Assembly: GCF_001590835.1 (NCBI RefSeq)
Contig: NZ_LTAQ01000034.1
Span: 1,166 to 65,165 of the forward strand
DNA length: 64,000 nucleotides
Source of the DNA: Bacillus gaemokensis
Lineage (GTDB): Bacteria > Bacillota > Bacilli > Bacillales > Bacillaceae_G
Direction of reading: 5' to 3'
A model generated the notes under the pieces. The model searched no databases and was not told where the DNA came from. It saw nothing but the letters and a program-made list of their open reading frames with translations. The translations under genes were made by a program, and so were the position numbers. Positions 40,864 through 55,700 of the stretch are shown here, in pieces. The first letter of the stretch is position 1. Each line of letters begins with the position of its first letter.

Positions 40864-42204
40864 TTAAATAATCCCAATCACATTCAAAAATACAATAACA
40901 ATCGCAATCGGAGCGACAAATCGAAGCAAGAATACCCAACAAGTAAATAACGACTTTCCGTAATTCCCACCAACAAAAAACTCAGCTTCTAGCACTTTTT
41001 TCTCCATTTTAAATGATACGAAAATGCTAATAAATAACGCTCCAAGCGGCATTAAAATATTACTAGATAAGAAGTCTATCGCATCAAAAATATTTTTACC
41101 AAAGATCGTGATGTCACTCCATACCCCAAATGAAAGTGCAGATGGAATACCTACTAGGAAAATAAAAAATCCAATTACCCATGACAATTTCTTTCTTCTT
41201 TCCTGTTGTCCATTCGCTAAAGCTGAAACAACCGTTTCAAGTAGAGAAAACGCAGATGTTAACGTTGCAAATGTGAATAGTGCAAGAAATACCGTTAAGA
41301 AGAAGCTTCCAAATGGGATTTGACTAAAAACGGATGGCAGGACGATAAATAATAATCCTGGTCCTTCTGTCGGCTCCATGCCTAGTGAAAATACTGCTGG
41401 AAAAATAGCCAGCCCAGCAAATAGAGAAACAAATAGATTCAATCCAACAATGGTTACCGCTGAACGTGGTAAACTTTCTTTTTTATTTAAGTAAGAACTG
41501 TACGTAATCATAATAGAAATCCCAATACTAATCGCAAAGAATGATTGTCCCATTGCAAACAAAATACTTTCTGCTGTAATCTTTGAAAAATCAGGTTGTA
41601 GGAAGAATTTGACCCCTTTCATTGCATCGTCAAGTGTTAATGAGCGAACGATAAGAGCGACAAATAAAACAAACAATGCTGGCAACATATATTTACTCGC
41701 TTTTTCAATTCCATTTTGTACCCCTTTTGATACAACCCAAATCGTAATAAACATAAAAGCAAAATGCCCTACAATTGCCCAGATTGGATTTCCAATTGTT
41801 TCTGTAAATAGTGAGCTATAATTTTGCTGCGGTGTAATAAGTTGTCCAGTTATCCCTCTGAATAAATAGATTAATACCCAGCCACCAACAACACTATAAA
41901 ATGATAGTAAAATAAAACAAGTTCCAACACCAAGACGTCCAATCCAATGCCAACTTGTATTCGGTGCGATACTTTTAAATGCTCCAATTGCTTGTTTTTG
42001 TGTACTACGCCCTACCATAAACTCAGCTAATAATAGCGGAAGACCTATTAATACCGTAAACAATATAAAGATTAAAAAGAACGCTCCTCCCCCGCTCTTT
42101 CCAGCAATATAAGGAAACTTCCATATTGCTCCAAGGCCAATTGCTGATCCTGCTGCCGCCATGATAAAACCTAATTTCGAAGTCCATTGCTCCGTCTGCT
42201 TCAT
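40864..42204 (-). CDS. NSS-family Na+-dependent amino acid transporter, under a Leu T-box
   Basis: A 446-residue LeuT-fold transporter with about 11 helices. TM1 [26 protein letters not shown] carries the unwound substrate and sodium site ([10 protein letters not shown]), here given as [19 protein letters not shown], and TM6 is around [18 protein letters not shown]. Family members import hydrophobic or aromatic amino acids. The T-box upstream has the specifier CUC, so leucine or branched-chain uptake is the best guess. AGGAGG lies upstream of the ATG. Between T-box and gene sits a short Leu-rich ORF. Confidence 0.88.
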
Positions 42205-42294: not shown

Positions 42295-42600
42295 AAAAAA
42301 TGGCCCAGCATCTCTTTATATAAAGAGACGCTAAGCCATTTGCTTAACGCGGTACCACCCTTATTGATTCCATTATGAATCCACCTTAGTAGTAATCGTT
42401 TGATTACAAACCTGATATCGAAGGTTAATCGTTAAGATTTACTAAGAATTAGACTTCTGTTCCACCTTACTGCTCCTAGGCGAGTTCAGGATGTCATTTG
42501 ACTATGTCACACCAACCCATAGCTCTCTGTACAAATACATGACCTTACTACTCCTATTCAACGCATTCCAATATTCTGAATATAACTTCTTTTGAAATTA
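42295..42600 (-). promoter_or_regulatory. T-box riboswitch, Leu specifier (CUC)
   Basis: The T-box core GGGTGGTACCGCG is at 42348-42360. The terminator hairpin (AGCGTCTCTT / AAGAGATGCT then TTTTTT) lies at about 42295-42338. In stem I the helix UAGG/CCUA below and GG..AUGU/ACAU..CC above enclose the loop UGAACUCG, which places the specifier CUC at 42482-42484. The AG-bulge sequence CAGAGAG is present near the top of stem I. It senses uncharged tRNA-Leu(GAG) and controls the NSS transporter. Confidence 0.9.
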
Positions 42601-44277: not shown

Positions 44278-44325
44278 AAAGAAAAGAATCTTCGCGACCG
44301 CTACGAAGATTCTTTTCTTTTTTAT
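44278..44325. terminator. Bidirectional terminator
   Basis: AAAAGAATCTTCG and CGAAGATTCTTTT pair with a 9-nt loop between the permease remnants and aspS2. Confidence 0.9.
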
Positions 44326-45620
44326 GGTATAAGACGCGTACAATCTCTCGGAAATGCACTTGCTTCTCGAACATTCGATAGTTCTAAGAACTTATATACG
44401 AGTCTTTCTAATCCAATCCCAAAGCCACCATGCGGTGGACATCCGTATCGGAATGTATCCATATAAGACTGAAAATTTTCCGGTTGTAACCCTTTTTCTT
44501 TAAAAGAAGCAAGTAACATATCATACTCATGAATACGCTGTGCACCTGACGTAATTTCTAATCCTTTATATAATAAGTCAAAAGAGTCTGTAATAGCTTG
44601 ATTTTCTTTATTTGGCATCGTGTACATCGGTCTCGCTTCTTTCGGATAATGTGTGATGAAAACAAAATCACTATTATATGTTTCCTTTACATACTTTCCA
44701 AGTAACTTTTCTCCTTCAGTATCTAAATCCCCTACTGGTGATTCTTTTCGATACTTTGTTTTTAAAATACGCTGAGCCTCTGCCAGCGTAATCTTCGGAA
44801 TTTCTGTCATTACAGGAACTGTAACTTGTAAGAGATTTAATTCTTTTTCACATTTCTGTCCTACCTTTTCAAACATATAGCGTAAAACATCCTTCTCTAA
44901 TGCCATCACTTCATGAAAATCTTCAATAAATCCGACTTCGACATCTAGTGATATATATTCATTCAAATGACGAGAAGAGTTATGATGTTCTGCTCGATAA
45001 ACAGGAGCAATTTCAAAAACACGTTCCAATCCTCCGGCTACCATCATTTGTTTATAAAACTGTGGAGATTGAGCTAAATACGCTTCTTTTTGAAAATATG
45101 GGAGTTTAAAAACATTCGCTCCCCCTTCAGCTCCTTGTGAAACAATTTTCGGTGTAAATATACGTGTGAAATCGTTCTCTATAAGGAATTCACTAAATGC
45201 CTGTACGAGTGTAGATTGAATCGTGAAAATTGCTTGTATCCGTTCATGTCGAAGTGATATGACACGTTCATTTAACATTTGGTCTAAACCAACTTGCAAG
45301 TTTCTTTTATTCACTTCAAAAGGGAGTGGCTCTGAAGTATTTAATATTTGCACCCTATCTACAAGCACTTCCACACCTAATTCTGTCTTTGTAGTCTCCA
45401 CAAGTTCGCCGATAATTTGAACTACACTTTCCACGTCTACTTTATATCCAGCTAATTCTTTTTCTAATACGCATTGAATGACACCCGTTCGATCACGTAA
45501 TAATAAAAAACTAAGATTTCCTAGATGACGAATTTTCTTCACCCAACCTTGCAGTAAAACCACCTTTTTACTAGACGCCTTACATTCACGAATGAGCGAC
45601 CGCTTCATTGTTTGCCCCAT
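44322..45620 (-). CDS. aspS2: Archaeal-type aspartyl-tRNA synthetase (AspRS2), under an Asp T-box
   Basis: A 432-residue class IIb synthetase: an N-terminal OB-fold anticodon-binding domain (about 15-105, LLQGWVKKIRHLGNLSFLLL) and a catalytic core without the GAD insert of bacterial AspRS. The flipping loop FQKEAYLAQSPQFYKQ is of the AspRS type rather than the AsnRS type. Motif 2 is YRAEHHNSSRHLNEY and motif 3 FGIGLERL. Many enzymes of this type charge both tRNA-Asp and tRNA-Asn with Asp; whether this one does is not shown here. The T-box specifier GAC supports Asp. AGGAGG precedes the ATG, and an Asp/Asn-rich leader ORF overlaps this start. Confidence 0.9.
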   Translation of the reverse strand: MGQTMKRSLIRECKASSKKVVLLQGWVKKIRHLGNLSFLLLRDRTGVIQCVLEKELAGYKVDVESVVQIIGELVETTKTELGVEVLVDRVQILNTSEPLPFEVNKRNLQVGLDQMLNERVISLRHERIQAIFTIQSTLVQAFSEFLIENDFTRIFTPKIVSQGAEGGANVFKLPYFQKEAYLAQSPQFYKQMMVAGGLERVFEIAPVYRAEHHNSSRHLNEYISLDVEVGFIEDFHEVMALEKDVLRYMFEKVGQKCEKELNLLQVTVPVMTEIPKITLAEAQRILKTKYRKESPVGDLDTEGEKLLGKYVKETYNSDFVFITHYPKEARPMYTMPNKENQAITDSFDLLYKGLEITSGAQRIHEYDMLLASFKEKGLQPENFQSYMDTFRYGCPPHGGFGIGLERLVYKFLELSNVREASAFPRDCTRLIP

Positions 45621-45687
45621 TATTCTTTCCTCCTATGTTTTCATATTTTTTCACATTATTGTTGTCATCGTCATCATCCACGGTCAT
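45586..45687 (-). CDS. Putative Asp/Asn-rich leader peptide overlapping the aspS2 start
   Basis: A 33-codon ORF following the perfect site AAGGAGGTGA. It reads MTVDDDDDNNNVKKYEN and continues IGGKNNGANNEAVAHS. Codons 4-8 are Asp (GAT GAT GAC GAT GAC) and 9-11 Asn (AAC AAT AAT). ATG at 45687 is only 3 nt from GGAGG, whereas GTG at 45681 in the same frame is at an ideal 9 nt. Codons 18-21 cover the aspS2 ribosome site, and the ORF ends 35 bases into aspS2 in another frame. A role in translational control is inferred. Confidence 0.6.
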   Translation of the reverse strand: MTVDDDDDNNNVKKYENIGGKNNGANNEAVAHS

Positions 45688-45707
45688 TCACCTCCTTCAA
45701 AGAATAC

Positions 45708-45945
45708 AAAAATCCGCCCCTATAAATAGGGACGGATTTTTCCGCGGTACCACCCAAATTGTCATACTGACCATCTTAGACCTGATAACGGTAGGTACCG
45801 TTCGCTTTTACTAATAATCACGTTCAAAGCAACACTCACAGGTGTCTTTCCATCATGCAGTATCGCAATCTTTCCAGCAGCCGATTGCTCTCTGTAGACC
45901 CTTGCATCATGTACTTTTCCTGTTCATCACTTTTTATATTTACAG
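45708..45945 (-). promoter_or_regulatory. T-box riboswitch, Asp specifier (GAC)
   Basis: The T-box GGGTGGTACCGCG is at 45743-45755. The terminator AAAAATCCGTCCCTAT / ATAGGGGCGGATTTTT is at 45708-45741. In stem I, helix ACAGG/CCUGU below and CAUGAUGC/GCAUGAUG above enclose the loop GAAAGACA, so the specifier is GAC at 45844-45846. It senses uncharged tRNA-Asp and controls aspS2. Confidence 0.9.
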
Positions 45946-46007: not shown

Positions 46008-46176
46008 TCATGTCCATTCCAAAACAATTTCTTCCAGAGCCATTCCTCGCGATCCTTTCACTAAAACATCATCATTTTGATTTGCGATTCCTTCAATTTC
46101 TTTTACTATATTCTCTTTATTCCAAAACATCTCCATTTATAATTTGTTCAATCTCTTGTAAATTCTTTTGAATCAT
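46008..46176 (-). pseudogene. murF-like scar: both ends of the gene joined
   Basis: ATG at 46176 has a good site (AGGGGATGGGGAG) and starts MIQKNLQEIEQIINGDVLE, which resembles the MurF N-terminus. It stops at once, but a shifted frame continues ENIVKEIEGIANQNDDVL and VKGSRGMALEEIV, which is the C-terminal signature of MurF ligases. About 400 internal residues are missing. MurF adds D-Ala-D-Ala to the muramyl tripeptide; the functional copy must be elsewhere. Confidence 0.6.
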
Positions 46177-52296: not shown

Positions 52297-55200
52297 TTAT
52301 TTTGCTGGGCTCAACTTAATCCGAACCTTTTTCTCACCTAAAGGAATTTCATCGTCTTCTTGTGACAATGCTTCAAACGTAAATTGTTTTACTAATAGGT
52401 TTTCTTCTAATAAACCTTTATGCTTCGTTAAGGTGTTTTGTAATTCATCTTCTGTGTCAACAATGATATCTACTCGTAAGTTCACTGGTAAATTCAACTG
52501 TTTTCGATACTCTTGAACCGCTCGAATAAATTCACGTGCTACTCCTTCTTGGAACAATTCATCAGTAACATTCGTATCTAACATAACTGTATATTTTCCA
52601 TTTGTAGTGTTAGAAAAGCCTGCTTGCGGTACTTGTTCTACTAATACATCTTCAAGTGTGATTACAACTTCTTCTCCTGCTCCAAGCTGATACAATGCTT
52701 TCTCAGCCCCAACAAATCTTTGTACTTCCTCTTGCGATAATTGCTTTAACCACTGATTTATAGCATTAACACTCTTTCCAAATTTCGGTCCTGCTGTTTT
52801 AAAATTCAACTTTAGCTGATACGTTGTATACTTTGTTTCATCTAATTCTACATGAAATTCTTTTACATTTAGCTCATCCATAACAATATCACGATAGGAT
52901 CTCCAATCTACGCTTTGCTCATGATGCTGGAGTAATACGATTTCTGCTAATGGCTGTTTGACTTTTAATGAATGTTGATTTCGATTGCTACGCCCAAGCT
53001 CAACAACTTGTAAAACAGCATCCATTTCTTCTTCTAACTTTGTTTGAATAAGTGTTTCATCTGCTATTGGATAATCTGTTAAATGAACACTGTTTCCTTC
53101 TAAATTAAGATGAATGTCTTCCGCGACAAACGGAGTAAACGGAGCAAGCAACTTACTAACTGTAACAAGTACTTCGTGAAGAGTTGCATATGCAGCTGCT
53201 TTCTCAGGATTCATGCCAGACTCCCAAAAACGATTACGCGAACGTCTCACATACCAGTTACTTACCTCATCTACAAATGCTGCAATTTCACGAGCTGCAT
53301 TTGTAAATTGATACTCATCGAGTGCATTTCTTACTTTCTTCGTCGTGCTATGAAGACGTGATAACATCCACTCATCCAACTTTGTGCGCGTTACTTCATG
53401 TGTCTTTTGCGGATCATACTTATCTAAATTTGCATATAACACATAGAAACTGTATACATTTACAAGTGTATCAACAAGTTTAGATTTCGCCTCTTGTACC
53501 GTTCTTTCAGAAAAACGTTTTGCATTCCAAGGTGCACTATCGACAAGAAGAGCCCATCTTAATGCGTCCGCACCAAATTTCTCGACTAAATCTACTGGGT
53601 TTAATGCATTCCCTTTACTTTTAGACATTTTCTGTCCTTGTTCATCTAACACATGCCCAAGTGATAACACACGTTTGTACGGTACTTTTCCTGTGTATAA
53701 AGCCGCTACTGCTAATAAGCTATAAAACCAGCCACGCGTTTGGTCAACACCTTCAGCAATTACATCCGCTGGAAATTGTTCCTCAAATAATTCTTTATTT
53801 TCAAATGGATAGTGGTATTGCGCAAATGGCATCGAACCGCTATCAAACCAAACATCGATTACTTCCGGCGTACGAGTCATCGCGCCCCCGCATTTTTCAC
53901 AGCATACCTTCACTTCATCTACATATGGTTTATGCAACTCTAAATTTTCTTCTGCACGACCCGTGCTATGCTCTCTTAATTCATCAATACTTTTCGGTGA
54001 AAATTGATGATCACAGCTTTCGCACTCCCATACATTTAACGGCGTTCCCCAGTATCGTTTCCGGCTAATATTCCAGTCCACCATATTCTCTAAAAACTTC
54101 CCAAATCGCCCATGTTTCATGTGATCGGGATACCATGTGACCTCATCATTATTCTTCAAGAAAGTCTCCTTGATTTCAGTCGTTCGAATAAACCAGCTTT
54201 CTCCAGCATAGTAAAGCAATGGCGAATCACAGCGCCAGCAGTGCGGATAGCTATGTTCATATTTCTCTTTTGAATACAGCAATCCTTCCTGCGCTAAATA
54301 ACGGACGATGTCAACATCACATTCTTTCACAAACTTCCCTTGTAAGAATGGTACAGCTTCCGTATATTCACCTTTTTCATCTACAACATGAAGAAACGAC
54401 AAACCTTGGTTCTGTACCACTTTATAATCATCTTCTCCATAAGCTGGCGCGATATGAACAAGCCCAGTTCCGCTATCTCCCGTAACAAAGTCTGCTGGAA
54501 TAACACGATATCCATTCGTAACTTCATCCATAAGAAATGGTGCTGCATAGGAAGTACCTACCAATTCTTCTCCTTTATGAACAGACAATACTTGATAGTC
54601 TTCTTTTAAAACGTCCTGCGCACGTTCTTTTGCAACAATATAAACAGAATCAACTTGCTTTACTTTTACATATTCCATATCCGGATGAACCGCAAGTGCT
54701 ACATTGGCAGGAAGCGTCCATGGCGTTGTGGTCCATCCAAGAAAATATTCATTTTCACTATTTAACACTTTAAACTTTACCGTTGCACTTAAATCTTTTA
54801 CCGTTTTATACCCTTGAGCTACTTCATGCGAACTAAGTGATGTTTGGCAACTTGGGCAGTATGGTGAAACTCGATGGCCTTTATATAGCAATCCTTTTTC
54901 ATGAATCGTCCCAAGAATATGCCATACACTCTCGATATAAGGGTTCTGCAAAGTTACGTACGGGTCATCCATATCAACCCAATATCCGATACTCTCCGTA
55001 AATTCACGCCACTGCTTCTCATACGTAAATACACTTTCTTTACATTTTTTGATAAATGGTTCAATTCCGTATTCTTCAATCTCATGTTTACCAGAAATGC
55101 CAAGTTGCTTTTCAACTCCTAATTCTACCGGTAATCCATGTGTATCCCATCCTGCTTTTCGAAGTACTTTATATCCTGTCATTGTTTTGTATCGCGCTAC

Positions 55201-55398
55201 TAAATCTTTAATCGTCCGTCCTAGTGCATGGCCAACGTGTGGTAATCCATTTGCAGTTGGCGGTCCTTCATAAAAAACGAAAGATTGTGCGCCTTCACGA
55301 TTTCGAATTGATTGCTCAAAGATATGTTGCTGGTTCCACTGCTTACGAATTCGTGTTTCTCTCCCTACAGCTGATTCTTTTACGTCTACCTTTTCCAC
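52297..55398 (-). CDS. ileS2: Isoleucyl-tRNA synthetase, type IleS2-like
   Basis: A 1033-residue class Ia synthetase that charges tRNA-Ile. The HIGH-type motif is [10 protein letters not shown] near residue 50 and the KMSKS loop is near residue 595. The editing domain lies between them, with [11 protein letters not shown] and [15 protein letters not shown]. The length and motif forms match the eukaryote-like IleS2 class, whose members are often mupirocin-resistant; B. cereus-group strains usually also have IleS1. The start is GTG at 55398 with AAAGGAGTGA upstream. An Ile T-box precedes it. Confidence 0.93.
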
Positions 55399-55433: not shown

Positions 55434-55700
55434 CAAAAAACCCGTCCCTATCAAGTAGGGACGGGTTTACCCGCGTTACCACCCTAATTCTATTAGCATC
55501 TCAACTAATAGCACTTAGCAACGTACTAACATACGCGTTCTTTGTAACGGTAGACATCCGTCCGAGCTTACTCTATTCAGCCACGGCTCCTCGGAGATGA
55601 TTTTCAAATAAAGTCTGTACACCGGCTTTCAGCAGTTTGCCGACTCTCTGGAGAACAGTACGATATTTTACTCTTTCTCGTCTTCAGATTTGTATACTTT
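55434..55700 (-). promoter_or_regulatory. T-box riboswitch, Ile specifier (AUC)
   Basis: The T-box AGGGTGGTAACGCG is at 55472-55485. The terminator AAACCCGTCCCTA / TAGGGACGGGTTTTTT is at about 55434-55468. The loop GAAAAUCA in stem I places the specifier AUC at 55599-55601, which agrees with control of ileS2. Confidence 0.92.

What the first reader, a model, noticed from the sequence alone, without database searches (positions are those of the whole stretch)
45586..45687. Asp5-Asn3 leader ORF behind an Asp T-box and across the aspS2 start
Directly seen: a near-perfect Shine-Dalgarno (AAGGAGGTGA) followed by an ORF whose first codons are M-T-V, five Asp and three Asn, with eight Asn in total among 33 residues. 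It lies between the T-box terminator and aspS2, and continues out of frame over the aspS2 ribosome site. Known: T-boxes sense uncharged tRNA at transcription, and leader peptides sense it by ribosome stalling. Inferred: when Asp-tRNA or Asn-tRNA is scarce, ribosomes stall on the run about 20 nt before the aspS2 ribosome site and leave it free; when charged tRNAs are abundant, leader translation masks it. An enzyme possibly serving both tRNA-Asp and tRNA-Asn would be read out by exactly such a mixed run. A T-box plus a stalling leader on one mRNA would be a two-step circuit I do not know to be described.
Basis: partly seen in the sequence, partly recalled or inferred. Interest (0 to 1): 0.88.

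Follow-up and report, generated by a model that had tools for sequence, protein, structure and literature searches.

The report
Asp/Asn-sensing leader behind a T-box
A tiny reading frame packed with aspartate and asparagine codons sits between an aspartate-sensing RNA switch and a spare aspartyl-tRNA synthetase gene, and comparison of bacterial relatives suggests that it acts as a second, translation-level sensor of whether those amino acids are loaded on their tRNAs.

Summary
Between an Asp (GAC) T-box and aspS2 lies a leader ORF with a strong SD and an Asp5-Asn3 run; the likely start is GTG 45681, not ATG 45687. The leader is at 25 of 25 distinct Bacillus/Paenibacillus-type aspS2 loci found and at none of 64 other, mostly clostridial, loci. 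It was seen at no other gene among 81 T-box loci examined. The run is Asp/Asn-specific: residues 2-10 are D160, N30, E2 of 225.

Native codons pair better than synonymous recodings in 21 of 25 loci, against 0-2 in seven other stretches. The window's own helix is weak (p=0.18).

Best reading: T-box control of transcription plus translational attenuation, ribosomes stalled on Asp/Asn codons keeping the helix open. That design is known for B. subtilis rtpA, so the circuit type is not new; the enzyme, the two-amino-acid run, the overlap and the helix are the new features. No expression data were available.

The parts
45725..45936 (-). T-box leader RNA (RF00230), full length
   Evidence: cmscan 140.6 bits; RF00230 over its gathering score upstream of aspS2 in the 24 relatives too (20, 4)
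45844..45846 (-). T-box specifier codon GAC (Asp)
   Evidence: my reading of the Rfam alignment; GAC in 23 of 24 loci by pattern, L010 and L218 read by eye
45708..45741 (-). T-box intrinsic terminator hairpin and T run
   Evidence: direct reading of the sequence
45688..45697 (-). Leader Shine-Dalgarno AAGGAGGTGA
   Evidence: GGTGA kept before the leader start in relatives
45586..45681 (-). Leader ORF from GTG 45681 (31 residues), overlapping aspS2 out of frame, stop TGA 45588-45586
   Evidence: between run end and aspS2 start the leader frame has a stop in 1 of 24 loci, the other two frames in 20 and 9 of 24
45655..45678 (-). Sensor run: five Asp then three Asn codons
45680..45692 (-). 5' arm of the long-range helix (end of leader SD through start codon)
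   Evidence: in the window 12 pairs and one A-C mismatch
45591..45603 (-). 3' arm of the long-range helix, inside aspS2 (end of codon 6 to codon 10, K-R-S-L-I)
   Evidence: synonymous-codon test p<0.05 in 21 of 25 loci, window p=0.176
45629..45634 (-). aspS2 Shine-Dalgarno AGGAGG, inside the loop of the helix
   Evidence: fold
44322..45620 (-). aspS2: 432-aa archaeal-type aspartyl-tRNA synthetase, aspartate--tRNA(Asn) ligase family
   Evidence: NCBIfam NF003483 617.1 bits (cut-off 353) and TIGR00458 454.6 bits (cut-off 368.4); best solved relative 1n9w, non-discriminating archaeal-type AspRS

Best explanation
The aspS2 mRNA carries two sensors of tRNA charging in series. Gate 1: an Asp T-box lets transcription pass its terminator when uncharged tRNA-Asp binds (known mechanism; specifier read here). 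Gate 2: the read-through mRNA begins with a strong ribosome site for a short leader ORF whose first codons are Asp and Asn. A long-range helix joins the leader SD/start to aspS2 codons 6-10 in the window (as far as codon 19 in L093), with the aspS2 ribosome site in its loop. If charged Asp- and Asn-tRNA are plentiful, ribosomes run through the leader, pass over the aspS2 start and let the helix close behind them, so aspS2 stays low. If either charged tRNA is scarce, ribosomes wait on the run. A ribosome there covers or separates the 5' arm, the helix cannot form, the aspS2 ribosome site (20 nt past the run in the window) is free, and the spare synthetase is made. Shown by comparison and folding: anatomy, conservation, Asp/Asn specificity and arm pairing. 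Inferred: translation of the leader, stalling, the direction of control and the effect of the helix.
For: Leader at 25 of 25 loci (24, L218); T-box at the same 25. In 392 genomes of one order the leader pattern hits the same 10 genomes that carry aspS2. Pairwise differences by codon position 599/297/1280 in run columns, 1457/1689/1840 in the others (24 loci). Codons 2-10 of 25 leaders: GAT107 GAC53 AAC19 AAT11 against AAA4 GAG1 GAA1. Leader frame closed before aspS2 in 1 of 24, other frames in 20 and 9. Helix: recoding p<0.05 in 21 of 25 loci at codons 2-25, in 0-2 of 24-25 loci in seven later stretches. Own arms -22.7 kcal/mol against -18.8 (sd 0.65) for arms permuted among all loci; 0 of 20000 permutations as low. 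RNAalifold finds this helix and no other in two groups, 7 and 13 loci. Keeping leader start and run unpaired lowers the modelled cost of opening the aspS2 site from 12.6 to 8.3 kcal/mol on average, by 2 or more in 20 of 25. Precedent: rtpA.
Against: No ribosome profiling, reporter or starvation data. The window's own helix is the weakest of the 25 (-15.3 kcal/mol, one mismatch, recoding p=0.176); L009, L090 and L093 also miss p<0.05. Total fold stability of the region is not unusual in the window (z 0.0), L001 (-0.4) or L093 (+0.6), though it reaches -4.2 elsewhere. Arms swapped within a clade pair as well as own arms (Paenibacillus type -23.6 against own -24.2; window and Lederbergia type -21.6 against own -21.2), so the arm-swap signal is between clades. 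RNAalifold covariation is slight: 2 compensated pairs in each group, terms -0.75 and +0.08. The register differs by two bases between the groups. Opening cost does not fall in L004 and L008 and falls by less than 2 in L010, L012 and L093; one search had no shuffled control. L005 and L006 are in frame with aspS2, and L098 has a patchy run.
Confidence: 0.7

Rival explanations
1. Masking only: leader translation covers the aspS2 ribosome site, a stall upstream uncovers it, and the helix matters little.
For: The leader frame passes the aspS2 start in 23 of 24 loci tabulated, 2 of them in frame; rtpLP precedent; the window's own helix is the weakest of 25.
Against: Synonymous-codon and arm-swap tests point to selection for pairing of these arms, which masking alone does not need.
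Confidence: 0.12
2. Translational activation: each leader ribosome melts the helix and so raises aspS2 translation; the run only sets the dwell time.
For: The leader SD and start lie in the helix, and the leader ORF runs into or past the 3' arm in most loci.
Against: Stops lie at +32 to +191 out of frame in 21 of 24, too far for ordinary termination-reinitiation (the distance limit is recalled). It does not by itself explain Asp/Asn specificity.
Confidence: 0.1
3. Acidic-run effect: Asp residues near the N-terminus pause or destabilise the ribosome by themselves (intrinsic ribosome destabilisation, as in MgtL), without sensing tRNA.
For: Early acidic residues pause or release E. coli ribosomes (passages of PMC11282234).
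Against: Glu would serve as well but is 2 of 225 residues at positions 2-10, while neutral Asn is 30 of 225; [quoted passage not shown] There is already an Asp T-box on the mRNA.
Confidence: 0.05
4. The run is an Asp-rich N-terminal extension of AspS2, read in frame or by frameshift.
For: L005 and L006 are in frame with aspS2.
Against: Of 24 tabulated loci 21 pass the start out of frame, in either register, and one stops before the gene.
Confidence: 0.02

Closest known systems
B. subtilis rtpA (yczA, anti-TRAP) leader: Trp T-box plus rtpLP leader peptide
   Same: T-box for the same amino acid in front; leader ORF with cognate codons upstream of the gene; complete leader translation prevents translation of the gene in rtpA
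   Different: Here the gene is a tRNA synthetase; two amino acids are read; the leader usually passes the gene's start instead of stopping before it (the rtpLP stop position is recalled); a long-range helix joins leader start and gene
Translational attenuators such as ermC/ermCL
   Same: A ribosome stalled on a short leader changes RNA pairing and frees the downstream ribosome site (recalled)
   Different: Sensor would be codon-specific tRNA charging rather than a drug; the leader overlaps the gene; a T-box gates transcription
Other T-box controlled genes
   Same: RF00230 T-box with terminator
   Different: Of 81 T-box loci examined with a recognised motif, only the two aspS2 ones had an Asp/Asn-run leader, and no other had a clear cognate run
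MgtL-type intrinsic ribosome destabilisation leaders
   Same: Acidic residues at the start of a leader peptide
   Different: Asp/Asn with hardly any Glu; no Pro at positions 2-10 of the 25 leaders

Membership tests
T-box (RF00230) | Match over the curated covariance-model score | tested here: met
   140.6 bits, cut-off 93
T-box (RF00230) | Specifier codon cognate to the gene | tested here: met
   GAC in 23 of 24 by pattern; L010 and L218 by eye
Tandem T-box plus leader-peptide control (rtpA type) | Leader ORF with SD between terminator and gene | tested here: met
Tandem T-box plus leader-peptide control (rtpA type) | Run of codons for the T-box amino acid in the leader | tested here: met
   Asp5 in the window; Asp 160 of 225 at positions 2-10 of 25 leaders
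Tandem T-box plus leader-peptide control (rtpA type) | Leader stop just before the gene's SD (recalled feature) | tested here: not met
   Stop 32 nt inside aspS2 in the window; of 24 loci only L093 stops upstream, at -17
Tandem T-box plus leader-peptide control (rtpA type) | Gene translation rises when cognate tRNA is uncharged | not testable with these tools
   needs reporters or ribosome profiling
Translational attenuator | RNA pairing that closes the gene's start region and is disrupted by a stalled leader ribosome | tested here: inconclusive
   Pairing supported across loci, weak in the window; disruption only modelled, without a shuffled control
Non-discriminating aspartyl-tRNA synthetase (aspartate--tRNA(Asn) ligase) | Passes the curated family scores | tested here: met
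   best solved match 1n9w
Non-discriminating aspartyl-tRNA synthetase (aspartate--tRNA(Asn) ligase) | Charges tRNA-Asn as well as tRNA-Asp | not testable with these tools
   gatB is present in 9 of 9 carrier genomes tested, so Asp-tRNA-Asn could be amidated; charging itself was not tested

The most novel reading that the evidence does not exclude
A kinetic, one-shot decision on each mRNA. The leader ribosome site emerges from the polymerase before the aspS2 arm is made, so the first ribosome decides: if it stalls on Asp or Asn the mRNA stays open and yields the spare synthetase; if it runs through, the helix locks both start sites for the life of the message. The run would read charging of both possible substrates of one enzyme, tRNA-Asp and tRNA-Asn, while the T-box reads only tRNA-Asp. 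Modelled opening of the leader site costs 6.4 kcal/mol in a nascent leader (transcript to 45 nt past the leader start) and 12.7 in the full one on average over 25 loci; L003, L004 and L093 go the other way.
Probability: 0.35. Interest if true: 0.82.

Novelty: new variant of a known kind. Interest (0 to 1): 0.7.

Why it matters
The only T-box-plus-leader circuit known to me is rtpA (described in passages seen). A second one in front of a tRNA synthetase, kept across Bacillus- and Paenibacillus-type genomes, would show that stacking a transcriptional and a translational charging sensor on one mRNA is a recurring solution. It would also give a system with a clear logic (two amino acids, one enzyme) in which the two gates can be separated. 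An enzyme that may mischarge tRNA-Asn is a plausible reason for a double lock (inference).

Tried and rejected
Acid-only (destabilisation) reading: disfavoured by near absence of Glu. N-terminal extension: in frame at only 2 of 24 tabulated loci. Run as a bare RNA repeat: disfavoured by T/C drift at a third base that is almost always a pyrimidine (190 of the 196 GAN or AAN codons at positions 2-10). A general habit of T-box genes: 83 T-box loci tested, 80 fetched out of 260 matches counted in eight carrier genomes plus 3 in the window; 81 had a recognised motif, 14 had any SD-led ORF of 10 or more codons, and only the two aspS2 ones had an Asp/Asn run. L195, before a gene that looks like trpS (by recall), had five Phe of 13. 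Leader elsewhere: one extra pattern hit (G537/L226) lies inside an ordinary coding sequence, and one carrier (G451) has a leader too divergent to match. Local SD sequestration: not general; in the 12 Bacillus-type folds the aspS2 SD is unpaired with probability 0.41-1.00, but in the 12 Paenibacillus-type folds 0.01-0.50, so it may add to the lock there; not followed up. Plasmid aspS genes: no such leader by reading in L220 (300 bases read) and L221.

Rows dropped: L081-L085, L087-L089, L095 and L097 are re-fetched copies of other loci; L086 begins at the aspS2 start and was replaced by L218 (same genome); L212 is a degenerate second copy and was not counted. The 64 other loci were scanned only with the count (best score 5, against 7 or more in the 16 with leader); a few have less than 500 bases upstream. 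picked, for each locus, the SD-led start with most Asp/Asn, so its table leans towards finding a run. One of the 11 'run' columns (column 22) lies beyond the run.

Papers: PMC2311275, PMC2494555, PMC2916919, PMC11282234 and PMC11255114 were seen as passages; the others as search listings. Searches in which a paper on this leader could have appeared: no hits; 20 of 48 papers listed; 9 listed; 1 listed; none of the listed titles or abstract openings describes it. Subscription papers are mostly not held.

Full report
WHAT IS THERE. On the minus strand the order is: T-box (45936-45725, RF00230, 140.6 bits), its terminator (about 45741-45708), a strong SD (45697-45688), the leader ORF, and aspS2 (45620-44322). 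The specifier position reads GAC, Asp. aspS2 encodes a 432-aa archaeal-type aspartyl-tRNA synthetase that passes the NCBIfam cut-offs for aspartate--tRNA(Asn) ligase. Its best solved relative is the non-discriminating AspRS of entry 1n9w. Whether this enzyme charges tRNA-Asn was not tested.

RELATIVES. The 16 from Bacillus- and Paenibacillus-type organisms (L001-L015, L019) have the Asp/Asn leader (score 7 or more); the other 64, mostly clostridial by title, scored 5 or less. Searches by genome order found aspS2 in 10 of 392 genomes of the order of a Paenibacillus (G005) and 6 of 397 of the order of a Cytobacillus (G003), with overlapping draws of 2 of 19 and 3 of 299. After removal of duplicates, 24 loci including the window were tabulated, and L218 made 25. 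These 25 have the leader, and a T-box over the Rfam cut-off. No whole genome is held for the window. That it belongs to the B. cereus group is my inference from gene content, not a tool result.

THE LEADER IS A CODING, ASP/ASN-SPECIFIC ELEMENT. Typical peptides are V-DDDDDNDN (Lederbergia) and M-DDGDDDDDDNNNF (Paenibacillus). In 24 aligned leaders, pairwise differences by codon position are 599/297/1280 in the run columns and 1457/1689/1840 in the rest. In codons 2-10 of 25 leaders there are D160, N30, G15 and only E2 of 225; GAT107, GAC53, AAC19 and AAT11 against AAA4, GAG1 and GAA1. A purely acidic function would accept Glu; a bare RNA repeat would not be expected to keep a third-base pyrimidine while letting T and C drift. 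Between run end and aspS2 start the leader frame has a stop in 1 of 24 loci, the other two frames in 20 and 9 of 24; the loci are related, so these are not independent counts. The leader passes the aspS2 start out of frame and stops at +32 to +191 in 21 of 24, is in frame in L005 and L006, and stops at -17 in L093.

SPECIFICITY TO ASPS2. In the 392 genomes of the Paenibacillus order the leader pattern hits the same 10 genomes that carry aspS2. One of them (G174) has a second, degenerate aspS2 copy that also keeps a leader (L212). In the 397 genomes of the Cytobacillus order, 5 of 6 carriers match, the sixth (G451) has a diverged leader, and one extra hit is inside an unrelated coding sequence. 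Among 83 T-box loci tested (80 of 260 matches in eight carrier genomes, plus 3 in the window; 81 with a recognised motif), only the two aspS2 ones had an Asp/Asn leader.

A LONG-RANGE HELIX. Folding each of 24 loci from the leader SD to 45 nt inside aspS2 gave, in most, a closing helix between the leader SD/start and early aspS2 codons, the aspS2 ribosome site lying in the loop. Three tests follow. (1) Against 500 synonymous recodings of aspS2 codons 2-25, the native codons pair with the leader start better than 95% in 21 of 25 loci (median p 0.008). The four others are the window (0.176), L009 (0.112), L090 (0.384) and L093 (0.160). Seven later stretches of the gene give 0 to 2 of 24 or 25 (150 recodings each). 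(2) Own arms average -22.7 kcal/mol against -18.8 (sd 0.65) when 3' arms are permuted among all loci; 0 of 20000 permutations reach the observed value. This signal is between clades: arms swapped within a clade pair about as well as own arms (-23.6 against -24.2 for 13 Paenibacillus-type loci, -21.6 against -21.2 for the window and 4 close loci). (3) RNAalifold predicts this helix and no other for 7 Bacillus-type and for 13 Paenibacillus-type loci (13 and 15 pairs). Against it: only 2 compensated pairs in each, covariation terms -0.75 and +0.08, a register that differs by two bases between groups, fold z-scores near zero in the window, L001 and L093, and a weak helix in the window (12 pairs and one mismatch, -15.3 kcal/mol).

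MECHANISM. Keeping the leader start and run unpaired, as a parked ribosome would, lowers the modelled cost of opening the aspS2 ribosome site from 12.6 to 8.3 kcal/mol on average, and from 4.7 to 1.7 in the window. The fall is 2 or more in 20 of 25; L004 and L008 do not fall. No shuffled control was run for this number. The run ends 16 to 46 nt before the aspS2 start by the rule (34 in the window; L098 gave 65 because the rule failed on its patchy run). Hence the reading: T-box first, then translational attenuation by ribosomes waiting on Asp or Asn codons. Steps shown: anatomy, conservation, codon specificity, pairing. Steps inferred: leader translation, stalling, direction of control, role of the helix.

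WHAT IS KNOWN. The design is not new in kind. rtpA of B. subtilis has a Trp-specific T-box and the leader rtpLP with three Trp codons, and complete translation of rtpLP prevents translation of RtpA (passages of PMC2311275). The primary papers by Chen and Yanofsky (2003, 2004) were seen only as references; the 2003 paper is not held and the 2004 one was not asked for. No paper on an aspS2 leader of this kind showed among what searches listed, in an open-access library. Features that differ from rtpA are the target gene, the mixed Asp/Asn run, the overlap with the gene, and the helix.

VERDICT. Observation confirmed with a corrected start. Interpretation partly supported. A conserved new variant of a known two-gate design, awaiting a direct test.

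Noticed in passing
   Followed up: partly
L220, 2565-3848: Plasmid-borne aspS of Macrococcoides caseolyticum lies in a row behind a methyltransferase, an MFS transporter and an unknown protein, with no T-box or Asp/Asn leader seen in the 300 bases read upstream; possibly a self-protection synthetase.
   Followed up: partly
L221, upstream of 2637: Plasmid-borne aspS of Paraclostridium bifermentans seems, by reading, to have two T-box-like antiterminator/terminator units in tandem.
   Followed up: no
window 42321-42570 (-) and 55454-55693 (-): Two further T-boxes, in front of an NSS-type transporter gene (40864-42204) and a long ileS-like gene (52297-55398); no SD-led leader ORF of 10 or more codons was found behind either. 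Gene names are by recall.
   Followed up: partly
window 46008-46136 (-): A 42-residue ORF just upstream of the T-box resembles the C-terminal end of MurF (recalled, not tested); perhaps a gene remnant.
   Followed up: no
L010, 5176-5280 (-): Guanidine-I riboswitch near the aspS2 locus of Paenibacillus solanacearum.
   Followed up: no
L005 and L006, upstream of aspS2: The leader is in frame with aspS2 and has one Asn among residues 2-14, so leader initiation there would give an Asp-rich extended synthetase.
   Followed up: partly
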